The position numbers and the translations under genes were made by a program. A stretch of 19,448 nt of DNA from Xanthomonas cassavae CFBP 4642 (lineage in GTDB: Bacteria; Pseudomonadota; Gammaproteobacteria; Xanthomonadales; Xanthomonadaceae): contig NZ_CM002139.1 in the NCBI RefSeq assembly GCF_000454545.1, forward strand, positions 2,422,421 to 2,441,868. The letters are read 5' to 3'. Shown one piece after another: positions 1,214 to 19,448 of the stretch. Positions within the stretch are counted from its first letter, which is position 1. Every line of letters starts with the position of its first letter. The notes under the pieces were generated by a model, which ran no database searches, was not told where the DNA came from, and saw only the letters and a program-made list of their open reading frames with translations.

Positions 1214-1218
1214 AGAGA

Positions 1219-2298: not shown

Positions 2299-2306
2299 AA
2301 CTTTTT
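2299..2306. repeat. Right target-site duplication of the IS at 1227-2298
   Basis: aacttttt, identical to 1219-1226. Removing the IS and one repeat restores the original minus-strand reading ...FDKKVSL followed by TGA. Confidence 0.92.
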
Positions 2307-3563: not shown

Positions 3564-3570
3564 TAGTTTT
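3563..3570. repeat. Left target-site duplication of the IS at 3571-4642
   Basis: ttagtttt, repeated at 4643-4650. Its first base is also the A of the zeta-like gene's ATG (minus strand). Confidence 0.93.
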
Positions 3571-3573
3571 CCT
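3570..3573 (-). promoter_or_regulatory. Ribosome-binding site rebuilt by the IS end
   Basis: On the minus strand the junction reads caggaaaactaATG. The last IS bases (cagg) plus the first base of the target repeat form AGGA, 6 nt before the zeta-like start. The ancestral site, still visible beyond the other IS end at about 4650-4656, was GAGGA at 7 nt. The insertion therefore swapped one plausible ribosome-binding site for another. Confidence 0.5.
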
Positions 3574-4642: not shown

Positions 4643-4650
4643 TTAGTTTT
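4643..4650. repeat. Right target-site duplication of the IS at 3571-4642
   Basis: ttagtttt, identical to 3563-3570. The minus-strand sequence just beyond it (aactgagga) holds the original ribosome-binding site of the zeta-like gene. Confidence 0.93.
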
Positions 4651-4657
4651 TCCTCAG

Positions 4658-5233: not shown

Positions 5234-5269
5234 GATATAACGCGCAAGAGCGGCGTAGCGTGATTCGGC

Positions 5270-5642
5270 AAGCGCTGAATCAACTCGGGATAGTCTTTCA
5301 GTAGCTCACGCAATGTCTGCGGAACGGCGGGCGATGATGCATTGTCATCGACCGGTGTGGGGGCGGCTTTGACACGGTAGTGCCCTGCCTTCAGGAAATA
5401 GCTGGCTGAGGTGCATCATGCATCTCTGCGTCTTGAGCCGTTGGTTGGTGCGCTGCCGCGACCCAGGGCGCAGGCTTCGGTTTGCGTTTGGCCTGTACCG
5501 GCAGTCCCTTGCGGGGAAGTGCCCCAAGCTCACGCATCACCCGGTCATTGATGATCTGCAGGTCGCGCAGCAGCTGTGCTGTGTGCGCCGCGGGCACGAG
5601 CGGTGCCAGGGCGCTGTAACGAGAGTCTGTCTTCTTGCTCAT
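5270..5642 (-). pseudogene. Broken first copy of the duplicated upstream gene
   Basis: It starts well: ATG at 5642 with AAGGA 7 nt upstream (the ATG at 5648 is too close to it). It encodes MSKKTDSRYSALAPLV... to DAPQPAIS, then a stop at 5391. The frame continues after the stop with VSKPPP, matching MSKP in the second copy. It then shifts at a C5 run (5359-5363, G on the plus strand) into TPVDDNASSPAVPQTLRE followed by LLKDYPELIQRL, matching the second copy's PAPPVPQKLRELLKDYPELI. Directly after QRL the sequence jumps into the N-terminal region of the second copy (AESRYAALAR). So this copy has an in-frame stop, a -1 slip and a lost C-terminal half. An 83-residue fragment could still be made. 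Function unknown. Confidence 0.6.
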
Positions 5643-5959
5643 ATGCATGTCCTTTTGCAGATGTGTTCTGGGATCAACGGATTTTATGCAAATGGTAGCG
5701 CATCGGTATGCCTGCAGCGGCCTGTTCGGCTGAGCGATGATCGCCCACCAATGCCGACAGCGCCTGCGTCTTCCAAAGTGCTTACCGACTCCTTCAAGTG
5801 CATCTGCCCAGGCGCCTCTCCGCGCCTGGGGATGAGATCAGCATACGGCGCCCCAACCGGTTGCAGATAGCCGGGTGCACTGCGATATAGAGACGCTGTC
5901 CGCAACTACGATTCGTCCTCCATAACGGCCGTCCGGAAACGATGCGATGCAGTCCGCTG
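5643..5959. other. Gap between virD4 and the duplicated gene: no intact gene
   Basis: I find no convincing gene in these 317 bases. The minus strand holds a short protein-like tail (ALSALVGDHRSAEQAAAGIP, then MRYHLHKIR and a stop near 5670) that opens only after an in-frame stop, so it may be the remnant of a lost gene's end. A perfect stem-loop lies at 5807-5830. An AT-rich tttgcataaaat stretch sits about 40 nt before the ATG at 5642 and could be part of a promoter, but no paired -35 element is clear. Confidence 0.4.
5807..5830. other. Perfect 9-bp stem-loop
   Basis: cccaggcgc and gcgcctggg flank a 6-nt loop. No T-run follows on either strand, so it is not a standard intrinsic terminator. 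It lies between the virD4 end and the next gene and may still slow transcription or protect the mRNA 3' end. Confidence 0.5.
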
Positions 5960-7705
5960 TTAGTGTCCGGCCTTGGTTTTCGCCCGATCCACCGCCAGCG
6001 CCTGCACTGCGACAGGGTCCATGATGCGCTTCTTCAGAACCGAGTCCTTGAAGAACCAATTCTTCTCGCAGCGGATCGGCTTGCTCCCTTCGAAGAACAG
6101 CAGTTCGTCATTGCCGGGAAGTTCCTTGATTTCCTGCGGGAGCATCAGCGCGCGGCGTTCTTCGGTGTAGTTGTACGACACGTTGCTTCCGCCGCCCCCC
6201 TTGCTGGTGGAACGATGCCGCTTGCGGATCGTCGTATACCCCAGCATGTCGCTATAGGCATTGGCATCTTCCTGTTCGCGAGGGGTGAACACGATGCTGG
6301 CGGCATGGTTGGTGATGAAGTTCTGCGCATCGTCGGCACCATAGGTGGCACGCAACTGCGACTGGCTCTGGATGATGCACAGATCGCGCACGCCGTAACT
6401 GGCGGAAATGGAGATGCGCTTTGACCACACATCGACCCGACCCATCGCGGTGAATTCGTCCATCAGCATCAGCATCTGATACTTCAGCTTGGGATCCTCG
6501 TTCAGCTGCTTGTCGAGGTTATTACCGATGACCGAGCTGAAAAAGATATTCAGCAGCTTGCTGCTTTCATCCAGCTTCTGGGTGGGGATGATGACGTAGA
6601 CCGTGGTAAGCCGCTTGCGGATGGCGGTGACGTCGATGTCCGTGGCATTGGTGGCGGCCGCCAGGATCGGGCTCAGGAACTGCTGCAACGGGGCCTGCAT
6701 GGTGGCCATGACCGAAGAGAAGGTCTGTTCGGCCAATCCGACCAGCGCACTGAAGGTGGAGCGCGTCTGTGGGCTGACGTAGGTGAAGTTCTTGTGCGTC
6801 AGAATTTTTTTCAGTACGTCGGCAGTGGTTTCACCATCGTGACCACCGGTGGAGAAGCGCAGGATGCGTTCGAAGCTGGGGAACAGCACGCTGGTATTGT
6901 GGTCTTCAACGCCAGGAAAACCGCTGCTTCTCATGTCGTGCCAGTTCTCGAACATATACGAGGCGAATGCGGTGAAAGCCGTACGCGCCTGGGTGACCCA
7001 GAAGCCGTCTTTGCCGGGCTCGTCCGGATACAGGATGGCCGCCATGGTCTGGATGGATGCGATGCGCTCGCGCGGATCCTCCGGGACCAGGGTGAGGGGG
7101 TTGAAGCGGTGGGTCTTTCCATCGGTGGCGTAGGGCGCCCAGACATAGATTTTCTGGCCCTGCGAGGCGCGGTATCCGCTGGTCGCCTTGAACAGCTCCC
7201 CCTTGAGGTCCAGCACCACCATGGATTGCTGGTAGGTCAGCAAGACCGGGATCGCAATGGAGGTGGTCTTGCCGGAGCGCGTTGGTGCAACCACGATCAC
7301 GTGCAGCGCGCCGTTGATGTAGATGTAACGGCCATTGAGTTTGCCGACCAGAATGCTTTCCGGCTTCTTCTCCAGCATGCCGGCTTTCTTGAGGTCGACA
7401 ACGGTGGCAAAGCTCGCCTCGCCGTGCAGGGATTGCTGTCTTTTTCTCAACAGGGGAATCAGCAGCAGCAACCAGACGATCAACGGCAGGCCAAAGCCAA
7501 TAACGCCGCTGATCTTGATGCGCGTGACATACGGTTGGACTTGCGGAAGGTTCAGCGCCTTCCAGTATTCCAGGTAGGTGGTCGCCTTCAATGGCACCTG
7601 CAACTTCAGCAACATCAGCGTCATGTAACCGGCCAGGTACAACCCGGCGACCATTGCAAGGACCAACAGGATCGCTGCAATGCCCACCTTTCCCTTACTA
7701 CTCAT
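5960..7705 (-). CDS. virD4: VirD4-type type IV secretion coupling ATPase
   Basis: A 581-residue VirD4/TraG-family coupling protein, which recruits substrates to a type IV secretion channel at the inner membrane. Two N-terminal membrane segments lie at about 7-33 and 66-86, followed by the family motif HGEASFA (94-100). Walker A is APTRSGKTT at about 140-148 and Walker B is LMLMDEF with Asp/Glu near 416. Conserved RDLCIIQSQSQL and FITNHAASIVF follow. A Gly-rich loop (SKGGGGSN) near 500 is unusual but lies in a variable part. ATG at 7705 has a GGAG-containing site. No virB channel genes are in the window, so it is either an orphan or works with a system encoded elsewhere. In Xanthomonas, VirD4 delivers antibacterial toxins, which makes the nearby zeta-like gene noteworthy, but that link is inference. 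Confidence 0.92.
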   Translation of the reverse strand: MSSKGKVGIAAILLVLAMVAGLYLAGYMTLMLLKLQVPLKATTYLEYWKALNLPQVQPYVTRIKISGVIGFGLPLIVWLLLLIPLLRKRQQSLHGEASFATVVDLKKAGMLEKKPESILVGKLNGRYIYINGALHVIVVAPTRSGKTTSIAIPVLLTYQQSMVVLDLKGELFKATSGYRASQGQKIYVWAPYATDGKTHRFNPLTLVPEDPRERIASIQTMAAILYPDEPGKDGFWVTQARTAFTAFASYMFENWHDMRSSGFPGVEDHNTSVLFPSFERILRFSTGGHDGETTADVLKKILTHKNFTYVSPQTRSTFSALVGLAEQTFSSVMATMQAPLQQFLSPILAAATNATDIDVTAIRKRLTTVYVIIPTQKLDESSKLLNIFFSSVIGNNLDKQLNEDPKLKYQMLMLMDEFTAMGRVDVWSKRISISASYGVRDLCIIQSQSQLRATYGADDAQNFITNHAASIVFTPREQEDANAYSDMLGYTTIRKRHRSTSKGGGGSNVSYNYTEERRALMLPQEIKELPGNDELLFFEGSKPIRCEKNWFFKDSVLKKRIMDPVAVQALAVDRAKTKAGH

Positions 7706-7830
7706 GCTTCCATCTCCGTGTGTGATTTGCCCCCGCGCCCGCGTACGGGCAGCGATGGGGAGGCGGTCTTTTCCAGGCCCCGCTCATCATAGATGAGAGC
7801 GGCGCGAACTGGCGTCGCCACGGCGTCAAC

Positions 7831-7857
7831 CTGTCGCCCCATGAAAGCGGGCGACAG
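7831..7857. other. Stem-loop upstream of virD4
   Basis: Nine-base perfect arms (ctgtcgccc and gggcgacag) around a 9-nt loop, in the leader or promoter region of virD4. It could be an operator-like dyad or an mRNA hairpin; the sequence alone does not decide. Confidence 0.4.
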
Positions 7858-7878
7858 GACGGAGTGTCGAAGTGGTCC

Positions 7879-7901
7879 TGGCCGGTCCCGGGCACCGGCC
7901 A
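7879..7901. other. GC-rich stem-loop downstream of flhA
   Basis: tggccggt and accggcca pair over 8 bp around a 7-nt loop, about 200 nt after the flhA stop. It lacks a T-run and could mark the 3' boundary of the flagellar transcript, but this is weak. Confidence 0.3.
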
Positions 7902-8098
7902 TGCGTGCTCCTGGCTGCACAGCAGTCTTGTTAGCCGCTCCGGTTCCCATGTCCAGCCGGCATGGAAACCAATCGGGGCCACAGTGCCGTCAGTTCATGC
8001 AGGCAGACGCCAGGATGCTCCCGGGCCCTGGTGCGCGCTCGTCGCCGATGCCGGGGATCGCGTGCAACGGAGGGACGGCCGATGCCGGTCCTGCGCCC

Positions 8099-10192
8099 CT
8101 AGCTGATGGTGCCGACCAGCTTCAGGCGCTTGTCTTCCGGCACTTCGCTGTAGGCCAGCACCGACAGGCTGGGCACGCTGTGGCGGACCAGGCGAGCCAA
8201 CGCGGCGCGCACCTGGCCGGGCACCAGCACCACGGCCGGCTCGTTGCGGGCTTCCTGCTTGCCGACGCAATCGGCCAGGCTCTGGTGCAGGCGTTCGGCC
8301 AGGCCGGGTTCCAGCGCCACGCCGTTGCCGTGGGTGGATTCCTGCAGCACGCGCTCCAGCTGCGGGGCCAGGGTGAACACCGGCAGCTCGGCCGACATGC
8401 CGGCGATCTCCTGCACGATGAAGCGGCCCAGCGAGGTGCGCACCGCGGCAGTGAGGGCGGCCGGGTCCTGGCTGTGCGGGGCATGCTCGACCAGGGCTTC
8501 GACGATCTTGCGCAGCTGGCGCACCGGAATGCGCTCGATCAGCAGGTTCTGCAGGACCCGCACCACCACCGACAGCGGCAATGCCTTGGGGGTGAGGTCT
8601 TCGACCATCTTCGGCGCGGTCTTGCCCAGCGTGGCCAGCAGCTGCTGCACTTCCTCGTGGCCGAGCAGTTCGGGGGCGTGTTCGCGGATCAGGTGCGACA
8701 GGTGGGTGGCGACCACGGTGGCCGGGTCGACCACGGTGTAGCCCATCGATTCGGCATAGGCGCGCTGATGCGGCTGGATCCAGGTGGCGTCCAGGCCGAA
8801 CGCCGGGTCCTTGCCGGGAATGCCGTCCAGCTGGCCGAGCGCACCGCCCGGGTCCAGCGCCAGCTCGCGGTCGGGATGGATCTCGGCGGTGGCGACCGGC
8901 ACGCCGTGCACCAGCAGGCGGTAGGCATTGGCCGACAGCTCCAGGTTGTCGCGAATATGCACCGGTGGCACCAGGAAGCCGATGTCCTGGGTGAGCTTGC
9001 GGCGCACGCCCTTGATGCGCGCCATCAGTTCGCCGCCCTGGTGCTTGTCCACCAGCGGGATCAGTCGATAGCCCACTTCCAGGCCCAGCGGGTCGATCGG
9101 GCGCAGTTCGTCCCAGCTCAATTCGGCGCTGGCCTGGGCGGTGGCGGCGGTGGCAGCGGCCTGCGGATCGGCAGCGGCATCGCCGGCGGCCGGCGCGGCC
9201 AGGCTGCGCTTGTACATTTTCCAGGCGATCACGCCCAGGATCAGGCCCAGCGTCAAAAACGCGACGTTGGGCATGCCCGGCACCAGGCCGACCAGGCCCA
9301 GGATGGAGGCGGCCACGGCCAGGGCGCGATGCTGGCCGAACACCTGGCCGATCATCGCCCCGCGCATGTCCTGCGCACGCGAGGCGCGGGTCACCAGCAG
9401 CGCGACCGAGGACGACACCAGCAAGGCCGGCAGCTGCGCCACCAGGCCGTCGCCGATCGACAGCAAGGTGTAGGTGGATGCGGCATCCACGAACGACATG
9501 CCGTGCTGGAGCATGCCCACCGCCATGCCGCCGATGAGGTTGATGAACAGGATCAGGATGGCGGCGATGGCGTCGCCGCGGATGAACTTGTTGGCACCGT
9601 CCATTGCACCGTAGAAGTCGGCTTCCTCGCGCACTTCCTCGCGGCGGGCCTTGGCCTCCTCGCGCGTCAGCAAACCGGCGTTGAGGTCGGCGTCGATGGC
9701 CATCTGCTTGCCGGGCATGGCGTCCAGGATGAAGCGCGCGGTCACTTCCGACACGCGCCCGGCCCCCTTGGTGATGACCACGAAGTTGATGATGGTCAGG
9801 ATCGCGAACACCACGATGCCCACGGCGTAGTTGCCGCCGATCACGAACTGGCCGAAGGCCTCGATCACCTTGCCGGCCGCGGCGTGGCCATCCTGGCCGT
9901 TGATCAGGATCACGCGGCTGGAGGCGACGTTCAGCGCCAGCCGCAGCATCGTGGTCATCAACAGCACGATCGGGAAGATGGTGAATTCCAGCGGGCGCTG
10001 CACGTACACCACCGCCAGCAGCACCATCAGCGAGATGGCGATGTTGAAGGTGAACAGCGCATCCAGCACCGGCGCGGCCAGCGGGACCATCAGCATGGCC
10101 AGCATGGCCATCAGCGCCAGCGGGGCGCCCAGGCCGTTGCGCAGCAACTCCATCACGCGGCGGGCGTTCATCGGGGCGGGTTGGGCGCTCAT
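8099..10192 (-). CDS. flhA: Flagellar biosynthesis protein FlhA
   Basis: A 697-residue FlhA, the export-gate subunit that forms the nonameric cytoplasmic ring of the flagellar type III apparatus and uses the proton motive force. The N-terminal half has about eight membrane segments (the first at about 20-60). The conserved FHIPEP-family cytoplasmic loop runs about 145-205, with RFILDAMPGKQMAIDADLN and the REEVREEADFYGAMDGA stretch. FLHA_C-type soluble sequence follows from about 350. The length is normal for the family. Its ATG overlaps the flhB stop by 4 bp (ATGA), so the two are translated from one mRNA. The usual next gene, flhF, is missing; the island with virD4 begins about 390 bp further on. 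Confidence 0.97.
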   Translation of the reverse strand: MSAQPAPMNARRVMELLRNGLGAPLALMAMLAMLMVPLAAPVLDALFTFNIAISLMVLLAVVYVQRPLEFTIFPIVLLMTTMLRLALNVASSRVILINGQDGHAAAGKVIEAFGQFVIGGNYAVGIVVFAILTIINFVVITKGAGRVSEVTARFILDAMPGKQMAIDADLNAGLLTREEAKARREEVREEADFYGAMDGANKFIRGDAIAAILILFINLIGGMAVGMLQHGMSFVDAASTYTLLSIGDGLVAQLPALLVSSSVALLVTRASRAQDMRGAMIGQVFGQHRALAVAASILGLVGLVPGMPNVAFLTLGLILGVIAWKMYKRSLAAPAAGDAAADPQAAATAATAQASAELSWDELRPIDPLGLEVGYRLIPLVDKHQGGELMARIKGVRRKLTQDIGFLVPPVHIRDNLELSANAYRLLVHGVPVATAEIHPDRELALDPGGALGQLDGIPGKDPAFGLDATWIQPHQRAYAESMGYTVVDPATVVATHLSHLIREHAPELLGHEEVQQLLATLGKTAPKMVEDLTPKALPLSVVVRVLQNLLIERIPVRQLRKIVEALVEHAPHSQDPAALTAAVRTSLGRFIVQEIAGMSAELPVFTLAPQLERVLQESTHGNGVALEPGLAERLHQSLADCVGKQEARNEPAVVLVPGQVRAALARLVRHSVPSLSVLAYSEVPEDKRLKLVGTIS

Positions 10193-11319
10193 GCGCTGGC
10201 TCCCTTGCCGAACTCATCCACGTCCAGCGACGGCAATTCCGGCATCGGGCCGCCGTTCCACCCGCGCAGCTGGTAGACGTAGGAGAGCACCTGGGCCACG
10301 ACCGAATAGAGTCTCACGGGAATTTCCTTGCCGATTTGCGCTTCCCTATACAAGGCGCGTGCCAAAGGCGGTGCGGTGACGATGGCCACCCGGTGCTGTT
10401 CGCCCGCTTCGCGGATGCGGAAGGCCATTTCGTCCACGCCCTTGGCCACCACGATCGGGGCACGCATCTTGCCGCCTTCGTACTTGAGCGCCACCGCGTA
10501 GTGGGTCGGATTCATCAGCACCACGTCGGCCTTGGGTACCGCTTCCATCATCTGGCGCTGCGACATCTGCATCTGCATCTGGCGGATGCGGCCCTTCACT
10601 TCCGGGCTGCCCTCGCTTTCCTTCATCTCGCGCTTGATCTCTTCGCGCGTCATCTTCAGCTTCCGCATCCAGTTCCACTTCTGGTACGGCGCGTCGATGG
10701 CGGCCAGCAGCACCAGCGCGCCGGCGGTGTAGAACAGCAGGCTCCTGGTGAAGTCCAGGCCGTTGCCGACCGCCTGTTCCAGCGGCTGGTTCACCAACGC
10801 GCGCAGGCCGTGCAGGCCCTTGGAGATGCATAGCCAGGCGGCCAGCCCCACGAACAGCAGGCGTAGCACCGATTTGACCAGCTCGGCCAGACTATTGCTG
10901 CCCCACATGCGCTTGACCCCGTTCATCGGGTTGAGCTTGTTGAGGTCGGGCATCAGCGCCTTGCCGGAGAAATGCATGCCGCTCATCAGCAGTGGCCCGG
11001 CCAGCCCAGCCAGCAGGCAGATGCCGATCAGCGGCACCATCACCCACAGCAGCTGCAGCAACAGGTCGCCGAAATGGCCGAACAGCGCCATCGGGTTCTC
11101 GCGCATCTTCGGGTCCGGGCTGAGCGCGGTCTTCATCCAGACCGCCGCGCCATCGCCAATGCCGCCGGCCAGGGCCATCAGGCCGAACACGCCGGCGCCG
11201 AACACCGCCGCAGTGGACAATTCCCGCGATTGCGGGATGTTGCCCTGCTCGCGGGCTTCGCGCAGGCGTTTTTCGGTGGGAAGCTCTGTACGCTCGCCGC
11301 CGTCTTCGGACTCGGACAT
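10189..11319 (-). CDS. flhB: Flagellar export switch protein FlhB
   Basis: A 376-residue FlhB, the export-gate protein that switches substrate specificity from rod/hook to filament subunits. The N-terminus has the usual charged start (SGGERTE-like: DGGERTELPTEKRLREAREQ), then four membrane segments between about 35 and 210. The soluble domain carries the autocleavage motif NPTH at 270-273, cut between Asn and Pro in this family, followed by YAVALKY. Length is normal. The start ATG at 11319 has no strong ribosome-binding site. A sigma-54-like promoter lies about 33 nt upstream, so flhBA probably starts its own transcript and does not only rely on read-through from the GGDEF gene before it. Confidence 0.97.
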   Translation of the reverse strand: MSESEDGGERTELPTEKRLREAREQGNIPQSRELSTAAVFGAGVFGLMALAGGIGDGAAVWMKTALSPDPKMRENPMALFGHFGDLLLQLLWVMVPLIGICLLAGLAGPLLMSGMHFSGKALMPDLNKLNPMNGVKRMWGSNSLAELVKSVLRLLFVGLAAWLCISKGLHGLRALVNQPLEQAVGNGLDFTRSLLFYTAGALVLLAAIDAPYQKWNWMRKLKMTREEIKREMKESEGSPEVKGRIRQMQMQMSQRQMMEAVPKADVVLMNPTHYAVALKYEGGKMRAPIVVAKGVDEMAFRIREAGEQHRVAIVTAPPLARALYREAQIGKEIPVRLYSVVAQVLSYVYQLRGWNGGPMPELPSLDVDEFGKGASA

Positions 11320-11351
11320 GGAGATGCCGGTAGGGGATCAGCCTGGGCTGA

Positions 11352-11367
11352 TGCAAGTGGCATTCCA
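11352..11367 (-). promoter_or_regulatory. Sigma-54-like promoter of flhB
   Basis: On the minus strand TGGAATGCCACTTGCA matches the -24/-12 consensus TGGCACG-N4-TTGCW at 10 of 12 defined positions, with exact GG-N10-GC spacing. The expected start lies about 22 nt before the flhB ATG. The element shares CCACTTGCATCA with the one in front of fliQ. Sigma-54/FleQ control of early flagellar genes is known in Xanthomonas. Confidence 0.65.
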
Positions 11368-11368
11368 G

Positions 11369-11389
11369 AATTGGGAATTGGGAATTGGG
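11369..11389. repeat. Heptamer tandem repeat (aattggg) x3
   Basis: Three perfect 7-bp units followed by a partial unit (aatc). It adjoins the -24 side of the flhB sigma-54-like element, so copy number could alter the spacing to upstream activator sites. Confidence 0.9.
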
Positions 11390-11574
11390 AATCGTAAGAG
11401 CGGTTGGCTGCGCGCTGGTTGGGCGCGCGGAGTGGATTGCCGCTACTGCGATCTAGCTGGCCAGGCGGCTTGGGCCGTTGCGTTGGGCGAGGGCCAGGGT
11501 GATGAAGTGCTCGGACCCGGCAGCTAGCGACCCGCCGCGCGTGTTCTTGAGGTCGTCTACCGCAACGCCGTGGA

Positions 11575-14496
11575 TCAGGCCACGGAAACTTCAGGTTCTT
11601 CCGGCTCGATGCGGTTGCGGCCGTGGCGCTTGGCCCGGTACAGCGCCTCGTCCGCGCGTGCCAGCAGCGTGGCGGCGGTGTCGCCGACGCGGAACCACGA
11701 CACCCCGATCGAGCAGGTCACCTGCAGCGGACGCGCGGCGCCGACGTCGTAGGGCGGCAGGCTGATCGCTTCGTGGATGGCGCGCAGCCGGTGCTGGCTT
11801 TGCCGGTGCATGCCGGGCAGCAGCAACAGCAGCTCCTCGCCCCCGTAGCGGCCCACCTTGTCCGAGTCGCGCAGGCAGGCGGTGAGCCGTGCGCCGACCT
11901 TGGCCAGCACTGCGTCGCCAACCAGGTGGCCGTGCTCGTCGTTGACCTGCTTGAAGTGGTCCAGGTCGATCAGCACCACCGCCAGCGGATGTTCGGCGTG
12001 CGCGCAGGTCTGCAGTTCCTCGGCCATCGCCTCGAGGACGCCGGAGCGGTTGAGCAGGCCGGTCAGCGCGTCGTGGCTGGCCTTCAGGGCCAGCGCCGCG
12101 CGTGCGCTTTCCAGGTCGCGTTTCTCCCGCTCCAGCTGATAGGTGCGTTCGGCCACCAGCTCGGCCAGCATGCGTTCGCGGGCGACCAGATGGCGGTGGC
12201 GCCAGCTCCACAGCCCGATCAGCAGGCCGCCGCCGATCAGCAGGTACAGCGCAATCGCCGGCGGGCTGCGCCACCACAACGGCGCCACCGCAAACGCCAG
12301 GTCCACCACCGGCGAGGCGGTGCGCCGGTAGCGGTCCAGCACCTGGACCTGCAGGCGGAAGTGTCCGGCCGGCAGCGGCGGCTGGTCGATCGACAGGTCA
12401 TCGCTCTGGATCCATTCGTCGTGCAGGCCGAGCAGGCGATAGCGCACGGTCAGCCTGCTCGGATCGTCGTAGACCTCCATCGTCGCCAGTTCGATATGCA
12501 ATGGCTTGTCGCTCCAGCGCAGCAGTTGCCCGCTGCGGATCGGTTCGCCGCCGCGGCTGACGCTGTCGATCCGCACGCTGGGCTGGCGCTGGTCGAACAG
12601 GCGCGCGGGGTCGTGCAGATGGCTGACCCCGCGCGCGGTGCCGATCCACACCGAGCCGTCCGGGTCTTCGGCAAATGCCGCTTCGGACACGTCGTCCCAG
12701 AGCAGGCCCTGCGACTGCGACAGATGCGCCCAGTGTTCGCCGTTATAGACCTCCACGCCGCGGGCGTGGCCAACCCAGATCCGGCCAACGCTGTCGCCGC
12801 GCAGCAGATACACCCCGACATCGCGCAATGCTTCGTCGCTGATCGCCTGCAGGTCCAGGCCATCGGCAAGCAACATGCCGTGCCACAGGCCGGGCCGATA
12901 GAACGCCAGCCACACTTCGCCGCTGTCGCTGATGTGGAATTTGCCGATCCACGGGTCGGCATCGCCGCCATTGACCTTCACCTGCACCTTGGACCAGCGC
13001 TCGCCCTGCAACCGGAACAGGCCATTGGCACTGGACACCCACAGCGTGCCGTCGGCGGTCTGCTGGATGTCGGTGTAGGCAACGGTGGGCATGTCCGCCA
13101 CCGGCTGCGGCGTGCCGCCTTCAAGCGGCCGCTCGATCACGAACAGGCCGCCAACGGTCAGGATCCAGAGCCGGCCCTGGCGATCGCTGTGCAGGCGCCG
13201 CGCGGTGCGGGGCAGCTTGGCTACTGCGGTGCTGCGGCCGTCAGGCCAGTTGCGGCGCAGGAACCCGGCGGAGTTGATCGCCCACAGGCTGCCATCGGCG
13301 CTGCGCGCCATGCCCACGATCTGGATGCCCGACTCCGGCAGGGCCGGCACGAAGCGTCCGCCGGGGGTGTCCTGGCGCCCGGCACCGTGTTCGTTGCCCA
13401 CCACCAGCGCATCGTGCGCATCGCGTGCGATCGACCAGGTTGGCGCAGCCGGCATGCCTTGCGAGGCGTCCCAGTTCTCGATCCATTCGTAGCCGGCCCA
13501 GCGCACCAGGCCTTCGCCATCCACGGTCATCCAGACATCGCCTTCCCGGTCCACCACGATCGCATCGCTGCTGCCCGGCGGCAGCCCGTTGTCTGCGCCG
13601 AAGCTGCGCCAGTGGCCGTTTTCCCAGCGCGCCAGGCCATCGTTGCGGCGGACCAGGACGCGTCCCTCGCGGTCCATCACCAGCGGTGCCTGTTGCCCGA
13701 CGGTGGTGCCATCGAGCAGTGGCAGCGGTCGCACGCTGAAGTGGCTGGCCCCGGCCGCGCGATAGAGCAGGGTGCCGGCGCCGCGCACCCACAGCGCACC
13801 GTCGTGATCGCGCAGCACGCTATACCAGCGATCCTCGGGAACGCCTTGCTCGGGGCCGTAGACCTGCACCTTGCGTTGCGCATCGATGGCGCACAGCTTG
13901 TGCGCACAGCCTGCCCACAGCGTGTCGCCGTCCACCGACAGGCTGAGCACCTTGGACAACTCCGGCACCTTGACCCGGGTTGCGGTATTCAGCAGCGGCT
14001 CGCTGTGCCAATGGCCGTTGGCGCGTTCGCTCAAGCGTTCCAGGGTGCCGCCGTTGGCCAATACCGTGCCCCAGGACGGGCTGGCCAGCAGCATGCCTTC
14101 CTGCAGGTGCTCGGCTTCATCGCGCGCCAGTTTGCGAAAACCATGCTCGTCGCCCACGAACAACGCCTGGAATCCAGCCACCCACAACCGCCCGTCGGGC
14201 GCTTCGCTCATCGCGGTGATCGGTTCGTTGCGCAGGCCGTCCAGCACCACCTGCTGGAACAGACGCCCGTTATAGCGATACAGCCCGCTTTCGGTGCACA
14301 CCCACAACGAGGTGTTGCGGGTCTGCAGCAGACAGGTGCCGGCCAGACCGAGCAGTCCCTGGTCGTGCGCATAGCGGCGGATGCTGGCGCTTTGCGCGCT
14401 TGCCAGCTCCGACAGCGACAGCAGCGCCACCAGCAGCACCGCAGCAAACGATGCACCCCGGCCCGACGCCCCCCATTGGCGCTGCACAAACCCCAC
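11575..14496 (-). CDS. Beta-propeller sensor diguanylate cyclase (GGDEF), paralogue 1
   Basis: A 973-residue protein predicted to make cyclic di-GMP in response to a periplasmic signal. A signal peptide (residues ~1-34, AVLLVALLSLSELASA) leads into about 650 residues of repeats with WxxxxxGL/LFR signatures (Reg_prop beta-propeller, for example LWVCTESGLYRY). A Y_Y_Y-like beta domain follows at about 650-735, one membrane helix at about 745-762, a coiled coil (RTYQLEREKRDLESARAA) and a GGDEF domain. The active-site loop is GGEEL at 885-889, with the RxxD inhibitory site RDSD at 876-879 correctly placed 5 residues before it. LIDLDHFKQVND is intact. The start is a GTG at 14496, giving a good signal peptide. 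It is a paralogue of the next gene upstream and sits between fliR and flhB. The ligand is unknown. Confidence 0.93.
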   Translation of the reverse strand: MGFVQRQWGASGRGASFAAVLLVALLSLSELASAQSASIRRYAHDQGLLGLAGTCLLQTRNTSLWVCTESGLYRYNGRLFQQVVLDGLRNEPITAMSEAPDGRLWVAGFQALFVGDEHGFRKLARDEAEHLQEGMLLASPSWGTVLANGGTLERLSERANGHWHSEPLLNTATRVKVPELSKVLSLSVDGDTLWAGCAHKLCAIDAQRKVQVYGPEQGVPEDRWYSVLRDHDGALWVRGAGTLLYRAAGASHFSVRPLPLLDGTTVGQQAPLVMDREGRVLVRRNDGLARWENGHWRSFGADNGLPPGSSDAIVVDREGDVWMTVDGEGLVRWAGYEWIENWDASQGMPAAPTWSIARDAHDALVVGNEHGAGRQDTPGGRFVPALPESGIQIVGMARSADGSLWAINSAGFLRRNWPDGRSTAVAKLPRTARRLHSDRQGRLWILTVGGLFVIERPLEGGTPQPVADMPTVAYTDIQQTADGTLWVSSANGLFRLQGERWSKVQVKVNGGDADPWIGKFHISDSGEVWLAFYRPGLWHGMLLADGLDLQAISDEALRDVGVYLLRGDSVGRIWVGHARGVEVYNGEHWAHLSQSQGLLWDDVSEAAFAEDPDGSVWIGTARGVSHLHDPARLFDQRQPSVRIDSVSRGGEPIRSGQLLRWSDKPLHIELATMEVYDDPSRLTVRYRLLGLHDEWIQSDDLSIDQPPLPAGHFRLQVQVLDRYRRTASPVVDLAFAVAPLWWRSPPAIALYLLIGGGLLIGLWSWRHRHLVARERMLAELVAERTYQLEREKRDLESARAALALKASHDALTGLLNRSGVLEAMAEELQTCAHAEHPLAVVLIDLDHFKQVNDEHGHLVGDAVLAKVGARLTACLRDSDKVGRYGGEELLLLLPGMHRQSQHRLRAIHEAISLPPYDVGAARPLQVTCSIGVSWFRVGDTAATLLARADEALYRAKRHGRNRIEPEEPEVSVA

Positions 14497-14598
14497 GAGC
14501 GTTGCTGTCTCCCACGCATCGGTGCGTGTGGTCCGCGCACCTCGCGCGGTGTCTCACGCTTGCCATTGGCGGCTCCATCGTAGGCCGCGCTATAGCGA

Positions 14599-14626
14599 CT
14601 AGCGGCTGTTCTCGCCGTTTACTTTA
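14599..14626 (-). promoter_or_regulatory. Weak sigma-28-like promoter for the GGDEF gene at 11575-14496
   Basis: The minus strand shows TAAAGTAA, a 12-nt spacer and GCCGCTAG, about 100 nt before the start. Each half matches 6 of 8 bases of the FliA consensus (TAAAGTTT-N11-GCCGATAA), but the spacer is one base long. It is weaker than the site in front of the upstream paralogue. Confidence 0.3.
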
Positions 14627-14745
14627 ATTGCATGCGGCAATCGATTGACGCGGTGAATCGGCGAGCGCAACCGCTGCGCGGATCCTGCGTAGACCGGTTG
14701 CGACCGCGATCAAACGACATGATTGATGCCCGTTGCAGCCTGTAC

Positions 14746-17709
14746 TCAACCGTCGCTGTCGGCGATCACCACCGCCGTCAGTTGGCCATCATCGTAATCG
14801 ATGCGGTTGCGGCCGCTGCGTTTGGCGCGGTACAGCGCCGCATCGGCGCGCGCCAGCAGTTGTTCGAGCGTTTCGCCGGGCTGGAACCACGCCACACCGA
14901 TCGAGCAGGTGACATGCAGCCAACCGCCATCGATGGGGTAGTCGCCGCAGATGCCGCGATGCAGGGCATCCAGCCGATGGGTGGCTTCGTGGGTCAGCCC
15001 GGGCAGCAGGGCCAGCAATTCTTCGCCGCCATAGCGGCCGATACGGTCCTCGCCACGCACCAGCGTATCCATGCGGCGGCCGACGCCGGCCAGCACCGCG
15101 TCGCCGGCCAGGTGGCCGTGCTGATCGTTGACCAGCTTGAAATGATCCAGGTCGATGAGCACCACCGCCAGCGGCCGGGCGGTCGCATCGGCGCGCTCCA
15201 GCATGTCGCGCAGGGCAGCAAGGATGCCTGCGCGGTTGAGCAGGCCGGTGAGTTCGTCGTGGGTGGCCTTGAGTGCCAGCGCGGCGCGGGCCGATTCCAG
15301 ATCGCGCTTGTCCTGCTCCAACTCTGCGGTACGCGTGGCCACCAGCTGTTCCAGCTCGCGCTTGCGACGCAGCAACTTGCGCGTGCGCCAGCGCAGCAAC
15401 AGCACCACGGCCGCGATGCCCAGCAGCACGTAGGCAACCAGTGCGGGGATGCCGCGCCACCACGGCGGAGCCAGCACGAAGCCGAACCGGGTCACCGGAC
15501 TGACGCTGCGCTGGCTTGCATCCACCGCCTGCACTTCCAGCGCGTAGCGGCCGGGTGGCAGCAGCGGGTAGGTGAGGTGGCTGAGCGAGGTCGTGGTCCA
15601 GCGCGCCTGATGGCCCTCCACGCGGTAGCGAAAGCTGATGCGGTCCGGGCCGCCCTCTGCGCCGGGGGTGCTGATATCCACGTCCAACGGCACCTGCGAC
15701 CACGGCACGCGCGCACCAGCGTTCAGGATCTGGTCGCCGCGGCGTGCCCGCAGCACTTCCACCCGCAGCGGTGGCGCAGCGAAGACGCGTAGTGGATCGA
15801 TCAGACGGCTAAGCCCGCGGCTGCTGCCGATCCAGACGCTGCCATCGGCATCTTCGAAGAAGGCATTGGCCGACACGTCGTCCCAGAGCAGGCCCTCGGA
15901 GCGGGTGACCCGCGACCAATGGCCGTTGTCGAGCAGGTCCAGGCCCTGGCTGCTGCCCAGCCACAGGCGGCCCTTGCTGTCGTGACGCAGGATGAAGGGC
16001 ATCACCCGCGAGACCAGCGGGTCGTCCACTGCGCTCAGCGCAACCGTGCCGTCGGCCTGTTCGCGACCATGCCAAAGCCCGGTATCGCGTAGCGACAGCC
16101 ACAGCTCGCCATCGGCAGCGAAATCGAGCAAGAAGAAGTCGTGGCTGGGCAGAGCGCCGTGTACCTGTACCTGCGCCCAGCGTCCGTCCTGCTGCCGGCG
16201 ATACAGTCCCTCGCGTGTGCTGGCCCATAGCCGGCCCTGGCGATCCAGATCGATGTCGCCCACGAAGGCGGCCGGCACTGACGTTTCGCGGCTGGCCCGC
16301 AGTGGCAGCTGTGGCGGAATCGCATACAGGCCGCGCGGCGTGCTCACCCACATCACGCCCGCTGGATCGAACAGCAACGTGTTGACCGGCAGGCCCAACT
16401 CCAGCATGTCCACGGTCTTGCCGCTGCTCGGATCGCGGCGCGCCAGGGCGCCGGAGGAGCGCGCCACCCAGGCCGCCCCATCGATCGGCGACAGCGCAAT
16501 CGAGATCGACTGCAGTAACGGCTCGCCACTGGCCAGCGTCCATGGCTGCACACGTCCACTGCGTGGGTCCAGCACGTTGGAGCCGGCATCACCGCCCACC
16601 AGCAGCGTTCCGTCGGGCAGGCGCTGCATGGCCCAGGTCGGCGCTTCGGCCAGGCCCTGGCTTTCGTCCCAGTGTTCGATGGTGCCGTAGCCCAACCAAC
16701 GCTGGACGCCAAGGCCGCGCGTGCCGATCCATAGCTGCCCGGTGCGCTGCATCATCAACGGACCCACCATCGGGCTGATCGACAACCCCTGGTCGTGCCC
16801 GAAATAGCGCCAGTGGTCGCCTTCCCAGCGCACCATGCCGCGATCAGAGCGGGTCAGCAGGCGGCCGTCGGCATCCTCGGACAGCGTGGTGGCGCCGGAA
16901 AGCGTATCGAAACGGGTGCTGGCCGGCGGCGGATGGTCGCGGAAGGTCTGTTCACCGGGTTCGCGCGACAGCACCAGGCCGCCGCCGCGTAGCCACAGGG
17001 CACCATGACGATCGCGGAAGATGGCGCGCCACTGGCATTCCGGCACGCCGTCGGTGTCGCTCAGCAGGGCGATCCGCCCATCGGCCTGGAGGTGACAGAT
17101 GCGCTTGCCGCAACCAATCCACAGCGTGTCGGCATCGGCCAGCACGGCCCTGCCGGCGGGCAGGGTGGTGCCGTCGTCCAGGCGCAATGGCAACGGCTGC
17201 ACTGCCCAGGCACCGGCAGCGACCGGCGCCACGCGCAGCAGCTGGTTCTCGCTGACCACCACCATGCCGTCCTGATAGGGGGCCAGCACATTGCCGCTGT
17301 CGGCACGGATCGGCGTGCCCTCGTGCAAAACCTGGCGGAAGCCGGTGCCGTCGCGGACGAACACGCCGTTGGCACTGGCAACCCAGAGCCGGCCTTGGGC
17401 ATCCAGCGCCAGTGCGCCGATATAGCGCGCATCCAGCCCGCTTTCCCTACCAATCGGGGTAAACCTTCCGCGCTCGAAACGATGCAGCGCTAGCTCGGTG
17501 CCGACCCACACCACGCCCTGGCGATCTTCGAGCAGGCTGTTGACGGTCATGCCCTGCAAGCCGTCGGCCTGCGCATAGTCGCGGAAGCTGTAGGTCTGTG
17601 CGCGCGCGGACAGCGGCATCAGCAGGCCGATCACGCATAGCGCCGCCAACCGCCACAGGAGGCTGTCGCGCAGGCTGCTTGGAGCGAACGACGCAGACAG
17701 GGTGGGCAT
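14746..17709 (-). CDS. Beta-propeller sensor diguanylate cyclase (GGDEF), paralogue 2
   Basis: A 987-residue paralogue with the same layout. The signal peptide is about 1-38, ending PLSARA before QTYSFRDYAQADGL. Propeller repeats run to about 660 (VVWVGTELALHRFERG, LWVASANGVFVRDG, VWIGSSRGLSRL). A Y_Y_Y-like domain, a membrane helix at about 745-765 (ALVAYVLLGIAAVVLLLRW) and a coiled coil follow. The GGDEF domain has GGEEL at 894-898 and inhibitory-site RGED at 885-888. The catalytic region LIDLDHFKLVND is intact, so an active, product-inhibited cyclase is likely. ATG at 17709 has a weak GGAA site. A sigma-28-like promoter lies about 56 nt upstream, in the 94-nt gap after fliR. A role coupling c-di-GMP to motility is inferred from location. 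Confidence 0.93.
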   Translation of the reverse strand: MPTLSASFAPSSLRDSLLWRLAALCVIGLLMPLSARAQTYSFRDYAQADGLQGMTVNSLLEDRQGVVWVGTELALHRFERGRFTPIGRESGLDARYIGALALDAQGRLWVASANGVFVRDGTGFRQVLHEGTPIRADSGNVLAPYQDGMVVVSENQLLRVAPVAAGAWAVQPLPLRLDDGTTLPAGRAVLADADTLWIGCGKRICHLQADGRIALLSDTDGVPECQWRAIFRDRHGALWLRGGGLVLSREPGEQTFRDHPPPASTRFDTLSGATTLSEDADGRLLTRSDRGMVRWEGDHWRYFGHDQGLSISPMVGPLMMQRTGQLWIGTRGLGVQRWLGYGTIEHWDESQGLAEAPTWAMQRLPDGTLLVGGDAGSNVLDPRSGRVQPWTLASGEPLLQSISIALSPIDGAAWVARSSGALARRDPSSGKTVDMLELGLPVNTLLFDPAGVMWVSTPRGLYAIPPQLPLRASRETSVPAAFVGDIDLDRQGRLWASTREGLYRRQQDGRWAQVQVHGALPSHDFFLLDFAADGELWLSLRDTGLWHGREQADGTVALSAVDDPLVSRVMPFILRHDSKGRLWLGSSQGLDLLDNGHWSRVTRSEGLLWDDVSANAFFEDADGSVWIGSSRGLSRLIDPLRVFAAPPLRVEVLRARRGDQILNAGARVPWSQVPLDVDISTPGAEGGPDRISFRYRVEGHQARWTTTSLSHLTYPLLPPGRYALEVQAVDASQRSVSPVTRFGFVLAPPWWRGIPALVAYVLLGIAAVVLLLRWRTRKLLRRKRELEQLVATRTAELEQDKRDLESARAALALKATHDELTGLLNRAGILAALRDMLERADATARPLAVVLIDLDHFKLVNDQHGHLAGDAVLAGVGRRMDTLVRGEDRIGRYGGEELLALLPGLTHEATHRLDALHRGICGDYPIDGGWLHVTCSIGVAWFQPGETLEQLLARADAALYRAKRSGRNRIDYDDGQLTAVVIADSDG

Positions 17710-17764
17710 CGGTTTCCGCGTAGAAGAAGTGAACGACGATCGAAGGGCTCAACCGGCTACAGCG

Positions 17765-17791
17765 TTGACGGCAAGCCACCCTGAAACTTGA
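17765..17791 (-). promoter_or_regulatory. Sigma-28 (FliA)-like promoter for the GGDEF gene at 14746-17709
   Basis: On the minus strand TCAAGTTT and GCCGTCAA are separated by exactly 11 nt. Against TAAAGTTT-N11-GCCGATAA they match 7 of 8 and 6 of 8 bases; TCAAGTTT is a common -35 form in pseudomonads. The predicted start lies about 50 nt before the ATG at 17709. It sits just after the fliR stop, between early flagellar genes, which suggests late-class timing for the cyclase. Confidence 0.55.
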
Positions 17792-17803
17792 GATTGCGGG
17801 GCG

Positions 17804-18595
17804 TCAGCCGGTCAGCTCTCTTGCAGCATCGAAGGCGGTATCGAACAGGCGCTGCACCGGCGGGGCGAACTCGCTGGCGAAGCTGGATAACAGGAACAGC
17901 CCCAGCAACACCGTCAGCGGCAGGCCCAACTGCATCGGGTTCAAGGCCGGCGCGGCCTTGGCCAGCGCACCGAAGGCCAGGTTCACCGCCAGCATCGCCA
18001 CCATCATCGGCAGGGCCAGGATCAGCCCGCCGCGCAGGATCTGCAGGAACAGCGTGGGCGCCACCTCGGCGAACGCGCTGGCATCGGGGATGGCGGTGCC
18101 GATCGGCAAGGCCTTGTAGCTGTCCACCAGCAAGGCGATGACTGCCAGGTGTCCATTGGCGGCGAAGAACAACAGGCCAAAACCGAGATAGAACCACTGT
18201 GCGATCACGCCCGAGGTCACTCCGCGCATCGGGTCGGACATCTGCGCAAACGACAGACCGGTGGACTGCGAGACCAGCTCGCCGGCCAGTGCGCCGGCTT
18301 CGAAGATCAGCTTGAGCATGAACCCCATGCTGGCACCGACCGCCAGTTCGCGCGCGATGCTGAGCACCGCGGTGGCGGTGAAGCCATCCCACTCCGGCAC
18401 CGGCGGCAGGATCGGCGCCAGCGCCATCGACAAGGTGCCCGCCAGCATCACCCGCACCCGCCCGGGCACCGCCCTGGTACCGATCAGCGGCATCGCGGTC
18501 AGCAACGCACCGGTGCGCAGCATCGTCCACATGATCGCCCCGACCATCGCGAACGCGCGCTGGCCGTCGATCACCATCTGGGTGGCAGCATCCAT
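17804..18595 (-). CDS. fliR: Flagellar biosynthesis protein FliR
   Basis: A 263-residue FliR, an integral membrane protein of the flagellar export gate that assembles with FliP and FliQ into the helical pore. It has several hydrophobic segments spread along its length and conserved stretches: RTGALLTAMPLIGTRAVPGR near 27-46, LKLIFEAGALAGELVSQSTG with FAQMSDPM near 95-125, and PMMVAMLAVNLAFGALAKAAP near the last third. Length is typical. It begins 13 nt after the fliQ stop, so the two form an operon. The next gene, a cyclase, has its own probable promoter. Confidence 0.96.
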   Translation of the reverse strand: MDAATQMVIDGQRAFAMVGAIMWTMLRTGALLTAMPLIGTRAVPGRVRVMLAGTLSMALAPILPPVPEWDGFTATAVLSIARELAVGASMGFMLKLIFEAGALAGELVSQSTGLSFAQMSDPMRGVTSGVIAQWFYLGFGLLFFAANGHLAVIALLVDSYKALPIGTAIPDASAFAEVAPTLFLQILRGGLILALPMMVAMLAVNLAFGALAKAAPALNPMQLGLPLTVLLGLFLLSSFASEFAPPVQRLFDTAFDAARELTG

Positions 18596-18608
18596 CCGGT
18601 CCGGCCCG

Positions 18609-18878
18609 CTAGCCGATCAGGTGCGGAATGCGCTGGAACAGCGCGATGGTGAACTCCACCAGATGCCCCAGCAGCATGCTGCCGGTCGCGAACAGGGTGG
18701 CCGTCAGTGCGACCGCCTTGGCGACGAAGGCGATGGTGGGTTCGTTCAACTGGGTCGCGGCCTGGACCACGCCGATCACCACACCCACCACCAGCACCGC
18801 CAGCAACATCGGTCCGGCAATCCACAGGACGGTGACCAGGCCACCACGCAATTCAGTCAGGGCGATTTCAGGGCTCAT
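18609..18878 (-). CDS. fliQ: Flagellar biosynthesis protein FliQ
   Basis: An 89-residue FliQ, a small two-helix subunit of the export pore. Membrane segments lie at about 16-38 (TVLWIAGPMLLAVLVVGVVI) and 50-72, with the conserved VQAATQLNEPTIAFVAKAVA between them. Length matches the family. No ribosome-binding site precedes the ATG at 18878, and the sigma-54-like element upstream predicts a transcript starting only a few bases before it, so it may be nearly leaderless. fliP, its usual upstream neighbour, is absent: that side holds only repeats and an IS end. Confidence 0.96.
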   Translation of the reverse strand: MSPEIALTELRGGLVTVLWIAGPMLLAVLVVGVVIGVVQAATQLNEPTIAFVAKAVALTATLFATGSMLLGHLVEFTIALFQRIPHLIG

Positions 18879-18890
18879 GGGCGGTGGTGA

Positions 18891-18906
18891 TGCAAGTGGG
18901 GTGCCA
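18891..18906 (-). promoter_or_regulatory. Sigma-54-like promoter of fliQ-fliR
   Basis: The minus strand reads TGGCACCCCACTTGCA, matching the -24/-12 consensus TGGCACG-N4-TTGCW at 11 of 12 defined positions with correct spacing. The -12 element ends 13 nt before the fliQ ATG, so transcription should start near 18880. Confidence 0.7.
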
Positions 18907-18913
18907 AAGGGGT

Positions 18914-18943
18914 GGGATTGGGGGGATTCGGGATTCGGGATTG
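18914..18943. repeat. Period-7 tandem repeat (gggattc/g)
   Basis: gggattc, gggattc and gggattg follow one another at 18923-18943, with a further gggattg at 18914-18920 two bases out of phase. Like the repeat near flhB, it lies directly upstream of a sigma-54-like element. Confidence 0.85.
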
Positions 18944-18986
18944 GAGGCTTGGCTGGCGGTTTGGTAGTTGGTTAGTTCGGTTTCAT

Positions 18987-19016
18987 CCTTGCCTTGCCTT
19001 GCCTTGCCTTGCCTTG
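18987..19016. repeat. Pentamer tandem repeat (ccttg) x6
   Basis: Six perfect consecutive copies of ccttg in non-coding sequence upstream of fliQ. Such a microsatellite may vary in copy number between strains. Confidence 0.93.
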
Positions 19017-19078
19017 CTGTTAGCGTGTCGCTGTCGCTCTGCTGTTGGTTTTTCGGGCCCCCATACCGCAGCGGCAAG

Positions 19079-19290
19079 CCGGGTAGATACAACCCGTAGG
19101 CATCGCGCAAGGATGCGCGATGTTTTTGTAAGGGACAGGGACGTCCCTTACAAAAATTTCTACCCGGATTGCGGACCTGGAGCGCGCAGCGCGGAAGGCG
19201 CGAGGACGGGGTGTGTTTCTTTGGTTACTTTCTTTGCACAAGCAAAGAAAGTGACTCGCCCCCCGAAGGGGGACGAAAGCTCTGCACTTG
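19079..19290. repeat. Extragenic multi-hairpin repeat, Xanthomonas type
   Basis: A dense set of inverted repeats without a gene. An outer pair ccgggtaga/tctacccgg (19079-19087, 19159-19167) encloses two hairpins: catcgcgca/tgcgcgatg (19101-19122) and a 14-bp arm pair tttttgtaagggac/gtcccttacaaaaa (19123-19156), so the RNA could fold as a three-way junction. Further right are actttctttgc/gcaaagaaagt (19227-19252, loop acaa) and ccccc-gaa-ggggg (19260-19272). I recall sequence like ctttggttactttctttgc as common between genes in Xanthomonas genomes; that is memory, not a search. Short ORFs through it are by-products of the repeat. Confidence 0.65.
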
Positions 19291-19342
19291 AATTTGCCTT
19301 GGCTCAACGCTTTTTAACTTTGCTTGTTAAGGGAACCTCTAA

Positions 19343-19448
19343 GGAAACTCTGAACAACTCCCCCTGATCCTGCGACAATCGCACAGAGGCACCAGGACGA
19401 TGACGATGCAACTGACCTTCGGCGACGCGGAGTACAACAGCAAGCGCA
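19343..19448 (+). mobile_element. Left end of an IS5-type insertion sequence (partial)
   Basis: The element is inferred from the transposase start at 19400. A likely left terminus is ggaaactctgaac at 19343, preceded by ctaa, which fits the 4-bp YTAR target duplication of IS5-group elements. An alternative terminus is gggaacctct at 19331, after ttaa. The right end is beyond the window, so neither can be confirmed here. Confidence 0.5.
19400..19448 (+). CDS. IS5-family transposase, N-terminal fragment
   Basis: ATG at 19400 (or 19406) opens MTMQLTFGDAEYNSKR, cut by the window edge. MQLTFGDAEY is a start I know from IS5-like transposases of Xanthomonas. Only 16 codons are visible, so the family is a recognition from memory. 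It is divergent from fliQ and occupies the side where fliP would be expected. Confidence 0.6.
   Translation, partial: MTMQLTFGDAEYNSKR

What the first reader, a model, noticed from the sequence alone, without database searches (positions are those of the whole stretch)
17765..17791. FliA-type promoter in front of a diguanylate cyclase inside the export-gate gene block
TCAAGTTT-N11-GCCGTCAA lies between fliR and the first of two GGDEF genes, while fliQ and flhB on either side carry sigma-54-like elements. If used, the cyclase would be made only after the hook checkpoint releases FliA, giving a timed rise in c-di-GMP from within the early gene block. This would be a built-in feedback from flagellum completion to the motility/sessile switch.
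Basis: partly seen in the sequence, partly recalled or inferred. Interest (0 to 1): 0.7.

Follow-up and report, generated by a model that had tools for sequence, protein, structure and literature searches.

The report
Late-flagellar promoters on c-di-GMP genes
In Xanthomonas and its relatives, genes that make or break the messenger c-di-GMP sit inside the flagellar export-gate genes and often carry their own late-flagellar (FliA-type) promoter, which suggests that finishing the flagellar hook adjusts the swim-or-settle signal.

Summary
The motif is real: TCAAGTTT-N11-GCCGTCAA, minus strand 17765-17791, 55 nt before the first GGDEF gene (G1). One genome could not show that it is more than chance; conservation does. 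The box is in 31 of 32 Xanthomonas genomes with G1 (window included), its two octamers almost invariant (1.97 and 1.84 bits) and its spacer free (0.47 bits). In 60 other genomes of the family, G1/G2-type cyclase genes next to fliR carry a FliA-type box in 19 of 20, against 0 of 15 where flhB follows fliR directly; 7 of the 20 and 6 of the 15 were tested with the criterion fixed beforehand. The second GGDEF gene has its own FliA-type box (14599-14626). A third gene found in 18 of 34 other Xanthomonas loci, deleted here, left its box at 11524-11550. The sigma-54 elements at fliQ and flhB are real and conserved. So the promoter call is well supported. "Only after the hook checkpoint" is not shown: no terminator was found between fliR and G1. 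"A rise in c-di-GMP" is not shown: about half of the relatives have a probable phosphodiesterase in the set. FliA-controlled c-di-GMP enzymes are known; this family-wide arrangement is a new variant.

The parts
17765..17791 (-). FliA-type promoter of GGDEF1: TCAAGTTT-N11-GCCGTCAA; predicted start near 17759, leader of about 50 nt
   Evidence: Sequence; conserved in 31 of 32 Xanthomonas, window included, with free spacer; start placed 6 nt after the -10 octamer by analogy with E. coli aer (PMC2859248, passages)
14746..17709 (-). GGDEF1 (987 aa): Reg_prop propeller, Y_Y_Y, hydrophobic segments near 15-35 and 751-776, GGDEF domain with GGEEL and an RxxD I-site
   Evidence: Pfam; GGEEL and I-site in 32 of 32 Xanthomonas copies; hydropathy
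14599..14626 (-). FliA-type promoter of GGDEF2: TAAAGTAA-N12-GCCGCTAG
   Evidence: in 35 of 35 Xanthomonas loci, with a criterion drawn from the same loci
11575..14496 (-). GGDEF2 (973 aa), paralogue of GGDEF1 with the same domains, GGEEL and I-site
   Evidence: Pfam; GGEEL in 34 of 35 and I-site in 33 of 35 Xanthomonas copies
11524..11550 (-). Left-over FliA-like box TCAAGAAC-N11-GTCGCTAG of a third c-di-GMP gene (MHYT-GGDEF-EAL) that 18 of 34 other Xanthomonas loci have in full length and this genome has lost
18891..18906 (-). Sigma-54 -24/-12 element before fliQ, TGGCACCCCACTTGCA
   Evidence: RpoN2 binds a 497-bp fliQ promoter fragment in X. campestris (PMC7280030, passages)
18609..18878 (-). 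fliQ
   Evidence: Pfam Bac_export_3
17804..18595 (-). fliR
   Evidence: Pfam Bac_export_1
11352..11367 (-). Sigma-54 -24/-12 element before flhB, TGGAATGCCACTTGCA
10189..11319 (-). flhB
   Evidence: Pfam Bac_export_2
8099..10192 (-). flhA
   Evidence: Pfam FHIPEP

Best explanation
The 17765-17791 box is a working FliA (sigma-28) promoter for GGDEF1, one of a set of FliA-type promoters that give each c-di-GMP gene in the fliR-flhB interval of Xanthomonas its own late-class start, while the early genes around them (fliQ, flhB) use sigma-54. Shown: the boxes, their conservation (for GGDEF1 against a free spacer), the sigma-54 elements, and FliA and FlgM genes without internal stops. Inferred: when the hook is finished and FlgM is exported, free FliA raises transcription of the membrane-bound, propeller-bearing cyclases (and, in about half of the relatives, of the EAL protein), on top of whatever reads through from the fliQ promoter. 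Newly flagellated cells would then carry a c-di-GMP module tuned by a periplasmic signal, a brake or set-point for motility rather than a plain one-way rise.
For: Exact box at the stated place. In 31 of 32 G1-bearing Xanthomonas genomes (24 distinct 27-mers, window included) the octamers carry 1.97 and 1.84 bits, the N11 spacer 0.47 and the 40 columns downstream 0.64. The three Xanthomonas genomes without G1 show no such box after fliR, only the box of GGDEF2. Elsewhere in the family, with G1/G2-type cyclase genes next to fliR, 13 of 13 (criterion set after looking at these loci) and 6 of 7 (criterion fixed beforehand) reach 14 of 16; where flhB follows fliR directly, 0 of 9 and 0 of 6. Counting every genome my rule classed as holding a c-di-GMP gene, 15 of 21 and 6 of 10; column-shuffled decoys average 0.04 (largest 2) and 0.06 (largest 3) genomes. 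All 19 positive cyclase-type loci outside Xanthomonas have the textbook GCCGATA in the -10. Boxes of the same type stand before fliC (recognised by its N-terminal pattern) and about 150 nt before the FlgM domain match of this genome, among 14 hits in 220 kb. FliA and FlgM are above cut-off. E. coli aer, a proven sigma-28 promoter, has the same T-to-C change in its -10 (TAAAGATA-n11-GCCGACAT; PMC2859248, passages).
Against: No transcript data. The Xanthomonas -10 (GCCGTCAA, C in 22 of 24 distinct sequences) departs from GCCGATAA at a position that is T in the fliC and flgM boxes of this genome; aer, with that change, falls from 223 to 53 units without CRP. One genome (L131) has a longer T run that sets the spacing to 15. 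MHYT-type first genes carry a box in only 2 of 11 family genomes, EAL-type ones in 3 of 5; a dCache-GGDEF gene straight after fliR (L186) and a G1-type gene in L204 have none. Looser matches are not enriched genome-wide. Read-through from sigma-54 is not excluded. Direction and size of any c-di-GMP change are unknown; a published alignment does not count GdpX2 and GdpX3, the likely orthologues, among proteins with a conserved GGDEF motif (PMC6637768, passages).
Confidence: 0.75

Rival explanations
1. The box is a real but minor FliA promoter: most G1 and G2 transcript comes by read-through from the sigma-54 fliQ promoter, so the cyclases are early or middle genes with only a late top-up.
For: No terminator-like site on the minus strand between fliR and G1; fliR and G1 are 94 nt apart. 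Precedent for sigma-54 read-through into a FliA unit: P. putida flgM-flgN-flgZ (PMC6093933, passages). In a table of a phoP study of X. citri, XAC1940, annotated as a signalling protein and lying next to XAC1941 fliR, has a negative value together with fliR, flhB and flhA (PMC6562643, one passage).
Against: Selection has kept both octamers over the genus, and comparable boxes in other genera and before the other c-di-GMP genes, which suggests that the late promoter matters.
Confidence: 0.35
2. The conserved element is the site of another factor or sigma class (ECF sigma, CRP/Clp-like, sigma-54 or a sigma-70 promoter).
For: The -10 of Xanthomonas (GTCAA) is not textbook FliA. 15 of 32 Xanthomonas sequences have a weak YGTGA-N6-TCAAG match overlapping the -35.
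Against: Fixed N11 spacing of two FliA octamers; GCCGATA at the same place in other genera; no sigma-70-like hit; between fliR and the next cyclase gene 22 of 35 loci, the window among them, have no GG-N10-GC at all and the other 13 score 5-9 of 12; the CRP-like match is absent from the window, L122 and L140.
Confidence: 0.08
3. Chance resemblance in an intergenic region.
For: In this genome alone, matches with up to two mismatches are no commoner than reversed controls.
Against: Conservation with a free spacer; co-occurrence with the genes, and decoys.
Confidence: 0.03

Closest known systems
E. coli pdeH (yhjH), FliA-dependent class 3 phosphodiesterase gene
   Same: A c-di-GMP enzyme made from a FliA promoter, linking hook completion to c-di-GMP (PMC5635695, passages)
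   Different: A phosphodiesterase, which lowers c-di-GMP; here the genes are cyclase-type and placed inside the sigma-54 export-gate block
P. putida bifA, and flgZ of the PP2258 pathway
   Same: Pseudomonad c-di-GMP components partly or dually controlled by FliA and sigma-54 (PMC5300878; PMC6093933; passages)
   Different: Different genes and loci; BifA is a phosphodiesterase and FlgZ a receptor; no fliR-flhB placement in the passages seen
A5904_0969 of Acidithiobacillus caldus, a cyclase/phosphodiesterase gene judged possibly RpoF(FliA)-dependent
   Same: A GGDEF-family gene that falls in a FliA-type sigma mutant (PMC6543871, passages)
   Different: Its promoter was not described in the passages seen; different domains (PAS/PAC, GAF)
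GdpX2, GdpX3 and GEdpX5 of X. oryzae (Reg_prop/Y_Y_Y-GGDEF and MHYT-GGDEF-EAL)
   Same: Same domain architectures; likely the orthologues of G1, G2 and the third gene, judged by domains only (PMC6637768, passages)
   Different: Catalogued in the passages seen without promoter or FliA analysis; the GEdpX5 homologue XOC_2335 is reported to enhance swimming (same review)
E. coli aer sigma-28 promoter
   Same: Functional FliA promoter with C at the same -10 position (PMC2859248, passages)
   Different: Belongs to the aer gene (an aerotaxis receptor, recalled) and is activated by CRP

Membership tests
FliA (sigma-28) promoter | -35 TAAAGTTT-like and -10 GCCGATAA-like octamers 11 (or 12) nt apart | tested here: met
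   TCAAGTTT-N11-GCCGTCAA: 7 of 8 and 6 of 8 to the E. coli consensus quoted in PMC2859248
FliA (sigma-28) promoter | Octamers and spacing conserved at orthologous loci | tested here: met
   31 of 32 Xanthomonas, window included; 19 of 20 family genomes with a G1/G2-type first gene
FliA (sigma-28) promoter | Genome encodes FliA and FlgM | tested here: met
   TIGR02479 at G000:C6:2415068-2415721 and PF04316 at 2493609-2493773, both above cut-off
FliA (sigma-28) promoter | Transcription by FliA holoenzyme, lost in a fliA mutant | not testable with these tools
   No expression data held
Active diguanylate cyclase | GGDEF domain with GG(D/E)EF active site | tested here: inconclusive
   GGDEF domain E=2.3e-39; motif is GGEEL in 32 of 32 G1. 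B. subtilis DgcP, described as c-di-GMP-synthesizing, also has GGEEL (PMC5422440, passages)
Active diguanylate cyclase | c-di-GMP synthesis | not testable with these tools
   No assay
Sigma-54 promoter (fliQ, flhB) | GG-N10-GC with TGGCAC-N5-TTGC context, conserved | tested here: met
   34 of 34 and 28 of 28 loci with the gene start in the fetched DNA, out of 35

The most novel reading that the evidence does not exclude
The fliR-flhB interval is a family-wide c-di-GMP slot: different enzymes (propeller cyclases, MHYT-GGDEF-EAL, an EAL-only protein) come and go there, while a FliA promoter directly after fliR is kept or regained in nearly all cyclase lineages examined and is lost when the genes go. 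Completion of the hook thereby sets c-di-GMP through sensors that read the periplasm.
Probability: 0.3. Interest if true: 0.7.

Novelty: new variant of a known kind. Interest (0 to 1): 0.52.

Why it matters
The FliA links to c-di-GMP met in the papers seen here are mostly phosphodiesterases that favour swimming (pdeH, bifA, PA4367). Here the genes most steadily placed under a FliA-type promoter are cyclase-type, inside the early gene block, in Xanthomonas and in related genera. If used, this is a built-in coupling from flagellum completion to the motile/sessile signal that can be tested with one promoter and one gene deletion, and it would give a reason why two little-studied cyclases sit among export-gate genes.

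Tried and rejected
Rejected: chance; sigma-70; a conserved CRP/Clp site as activator (mean best score 6.5 of 10 against 5.8 shuffled, YGTGA-type matches in 15 of 32 sequences, absent from the window, L122 and L140); an Rfam riboswitch in 10000-19448 (two hits, both below the families' gathering scores). Script error: the sigma-54 columns used a wrong offset and are replaced. The criteria for the boxes of GGDEF2 and the third gene were drawn from the same sequences, so those counts are descriptive; their spacers are partly conserved (1.24 and 1.11 bits) and discriminate less. The family criterion was written, so only one search is a test on loci not seen before. Rows set aside: the bits leave out L131 (spacing 15) and count identical 27-mers once; L125 is cut by the end of my region, so its third gene is unknown; the leader alignment used 29 of 31 distinct leaders. 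In the family survey I read 60 of the 135 non-Xanthomonas genomes with a fliR match; the 297 genomes searched were themselves drawn from a larger group.

Literature searches that could have shown a FliA-controlled cyclase or GGDEF gene in this locus; nothing in the listings or passages I saw described these promoters, which is not proof of absence.

Full report
What is there. On the minus strand of a Xanthomonas chromosome (genus inferred; nearest named relative among the contigs returned X. floridensis, 95% identical over GGDEF1, which may leave out very near records) the genes run fliQ, fliR, GGDEF1, GGDEF2, flhB, flhA.

More than chance? In one genome the case is weak: the exact form is unique in 5.27 Mb, but looser matches are as common as reversed controls. 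The answer comes from relatives. GGDEF1 is in 32 of 35 Xanthomonas genomes, window included, and 31 of the 32 have the box with N11. Among 24 distinct sequences the -35 octamer is invariant at 7 of 8 columns and the -10 at 5 of 8; means are 1.97 and 1.84 bits, the spacer has 0.47 and the 40 columns downstream 0.64. The one exception, L131, keeps both octamers but has a longer T run, so that they stand 15 apart. The three genomes without GGDEF1 show no such box after fliR, only that of GGDEF2.

Beyond the genus. fliR was found in 153 of 297 genomes drawn from the family, 18 of them Xanthomonas. I read 60 of the other 135, in two batches. Batch one (40 genomes; the criterion was set on it): 13 of 13 with a G1/G2-type cyclase as first gene after fliR reach 14 of 16 on a FliA pattern with N11 or N12, as do 2 of 8 with an MHYT-type gene; 0 of 9 with flhB directly after fliR do; 1 of 10 others does. 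Batch two (20 genomes, the criterion unchanged): 6 of 7 cyclase-type, 0 of 3 MHYT-type, 0 of 6 without an insert, 2 of 4 others. Shuffling the pattern's columns gave on average 0.04 of 21 (largest 2) and 0.06 of 10 (largest 3). The three positive 'others' (L189, L210, L211) have EAL-type genes; two more EAL-type loci (L187, L191) are negative (EAL domain confirmed by Pfam for L210 only). L186, with a dCache-GGDEF gene straight after fliR, is negative too. A locus without the insert, L206, shows a TCAAG with a -10 that no longer fits, perhaps a decayed box. Nine of the 11 MHYT-type genomes have no box, all nine from one genus (g29), so the promoter is not universal.

The rest of the set. GGDEF2 has its own box, TAAAG-N3-N12-GCCG(C/T)TA, in 35 of 35 Xanthomonas loci. 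In 18 of 34 other Xanthomonas loci an open frame of 693-724 aa follows GGDEF2; in L126 it is MHYT-GGDEF-EAL (the others were not scanned). A box TCAAGAA-N12-GTCGCTA (13 of 16 or better) stands before it in those 18, in L125 (cut by my region end) and in the window, where the gene itself is deleted (gap positions 1-56 and 64-279 match L122 positions 1-56 and 2122-2340). The 15 loci without that box lack the gene (8) or have a shortened frame (7); in part the same deletions may have removed both. Around the set, sigma-54 elements at fliQ and flhB are conserved. In X. campestris RpoN2 binds a fliQ promoter fragment (PMC7280030, passages).

How it most likely works. FliA and FlgM are encoded, and boxes of the same type precede fliC and, by about 150 nt, the FlgM domain match. 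By established knowledge of the flagellar hierarchy, FlgM export after hook completion frees FliA; the c-di-GMP genes would then be raised as late genes. This step is inferred. Two limits apply. First, no terminator-like site was found between fliR and GGDEF1, so a sigma-54 transcript may reach the cyclases early, as in the dual control of P. putida flgZ (PMC6093933, passages). Second, the sign of the effect is open: GGEEL departs from GG(D/E)EF, although B. subtilis DgcP with GGEEL is described as a synthase (PMC5422440, passages), and in about half of the relatives a probable phosphodiesterase belongs to the same set; a homologue of that protein in a rice pathogen is reported to enhance swimming (PMC6637768, passages). 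In the present genome that gene is gone, so here the set is cyclase-only.

The odd -10. Xanthomonas mostly has GCCGTCAA where the 19 positive cyclase loci of other genera have GCCGATA. The C at the sixth place also occurs in the proven E. coli aer promoter, GCCGACAT, which needs CRP for full activity (PMC2859248, passages). A weak, perhaps activator-assisted promoter is therefore possible; no conserved CRP-like site was found.

Known or new. FliA-controlled c-di-GMP enzymes and receptors are known (pdeH, bifA, flgZ; a possible case in A. caldus). I saw no description of FliA promoters on these cyclases in the searches listed; most subscription papers are not held. I rate it a new variant of a known kind.

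Noticed in passing
window 14497-14598 (minus strand): The leader of GGDEF2, after its FliA-type box, is about 100 nt long, strongly conserved in Xanthomonas (mean column identity 80% over 29 distinct leaders) and predicted to form hairpins; covariation is weak (3 of 23 pairs with a double change) and no Rfam family reaches its gathering score.
   Followed up: partly
window 11319-11574: A third c-di-GMP gene, present in full length in 18 of 34 other Xanthomonas loci between GGDEF2 and flhB, has been deleted here, leaving its FliA-like box and DNA from its far end.
   Followed up: yes
L131 (G001), fliR-GGDEF1 interval: A run of T in the FliA spacer sets the octamers 15 apart; such a run could vary in length between strains and switch the promoter.
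   Followed up: no
window 18878-18906: The sigma-54 element of fliQ is so close to the start codon that the predicted start of transcription lies about 2 nt before the ATG, an almost leaderless message; the distance is the same within a base in the other loci whose start was in the fetched DNA.
   Followed up: partly
window 1-8098; G000:C6:2418352-2430519: About 12 kb lies between the end of flhA and the FlhF domain match in this genome; the part inside the window holds two IS1595-type transposases, a zeta-toxin-like protein and a type IV coupling protein; the rest was not examined.
   Followed up: partly
fliR-flhB interval of L170-L175, L214, L215, L219: One genus (g29, probably Stenotrophomonas; name inferred, not from a call) keeps an MHYT-type gene in the slot without a FliA-type box, so its control must differ.
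   Followed up: no
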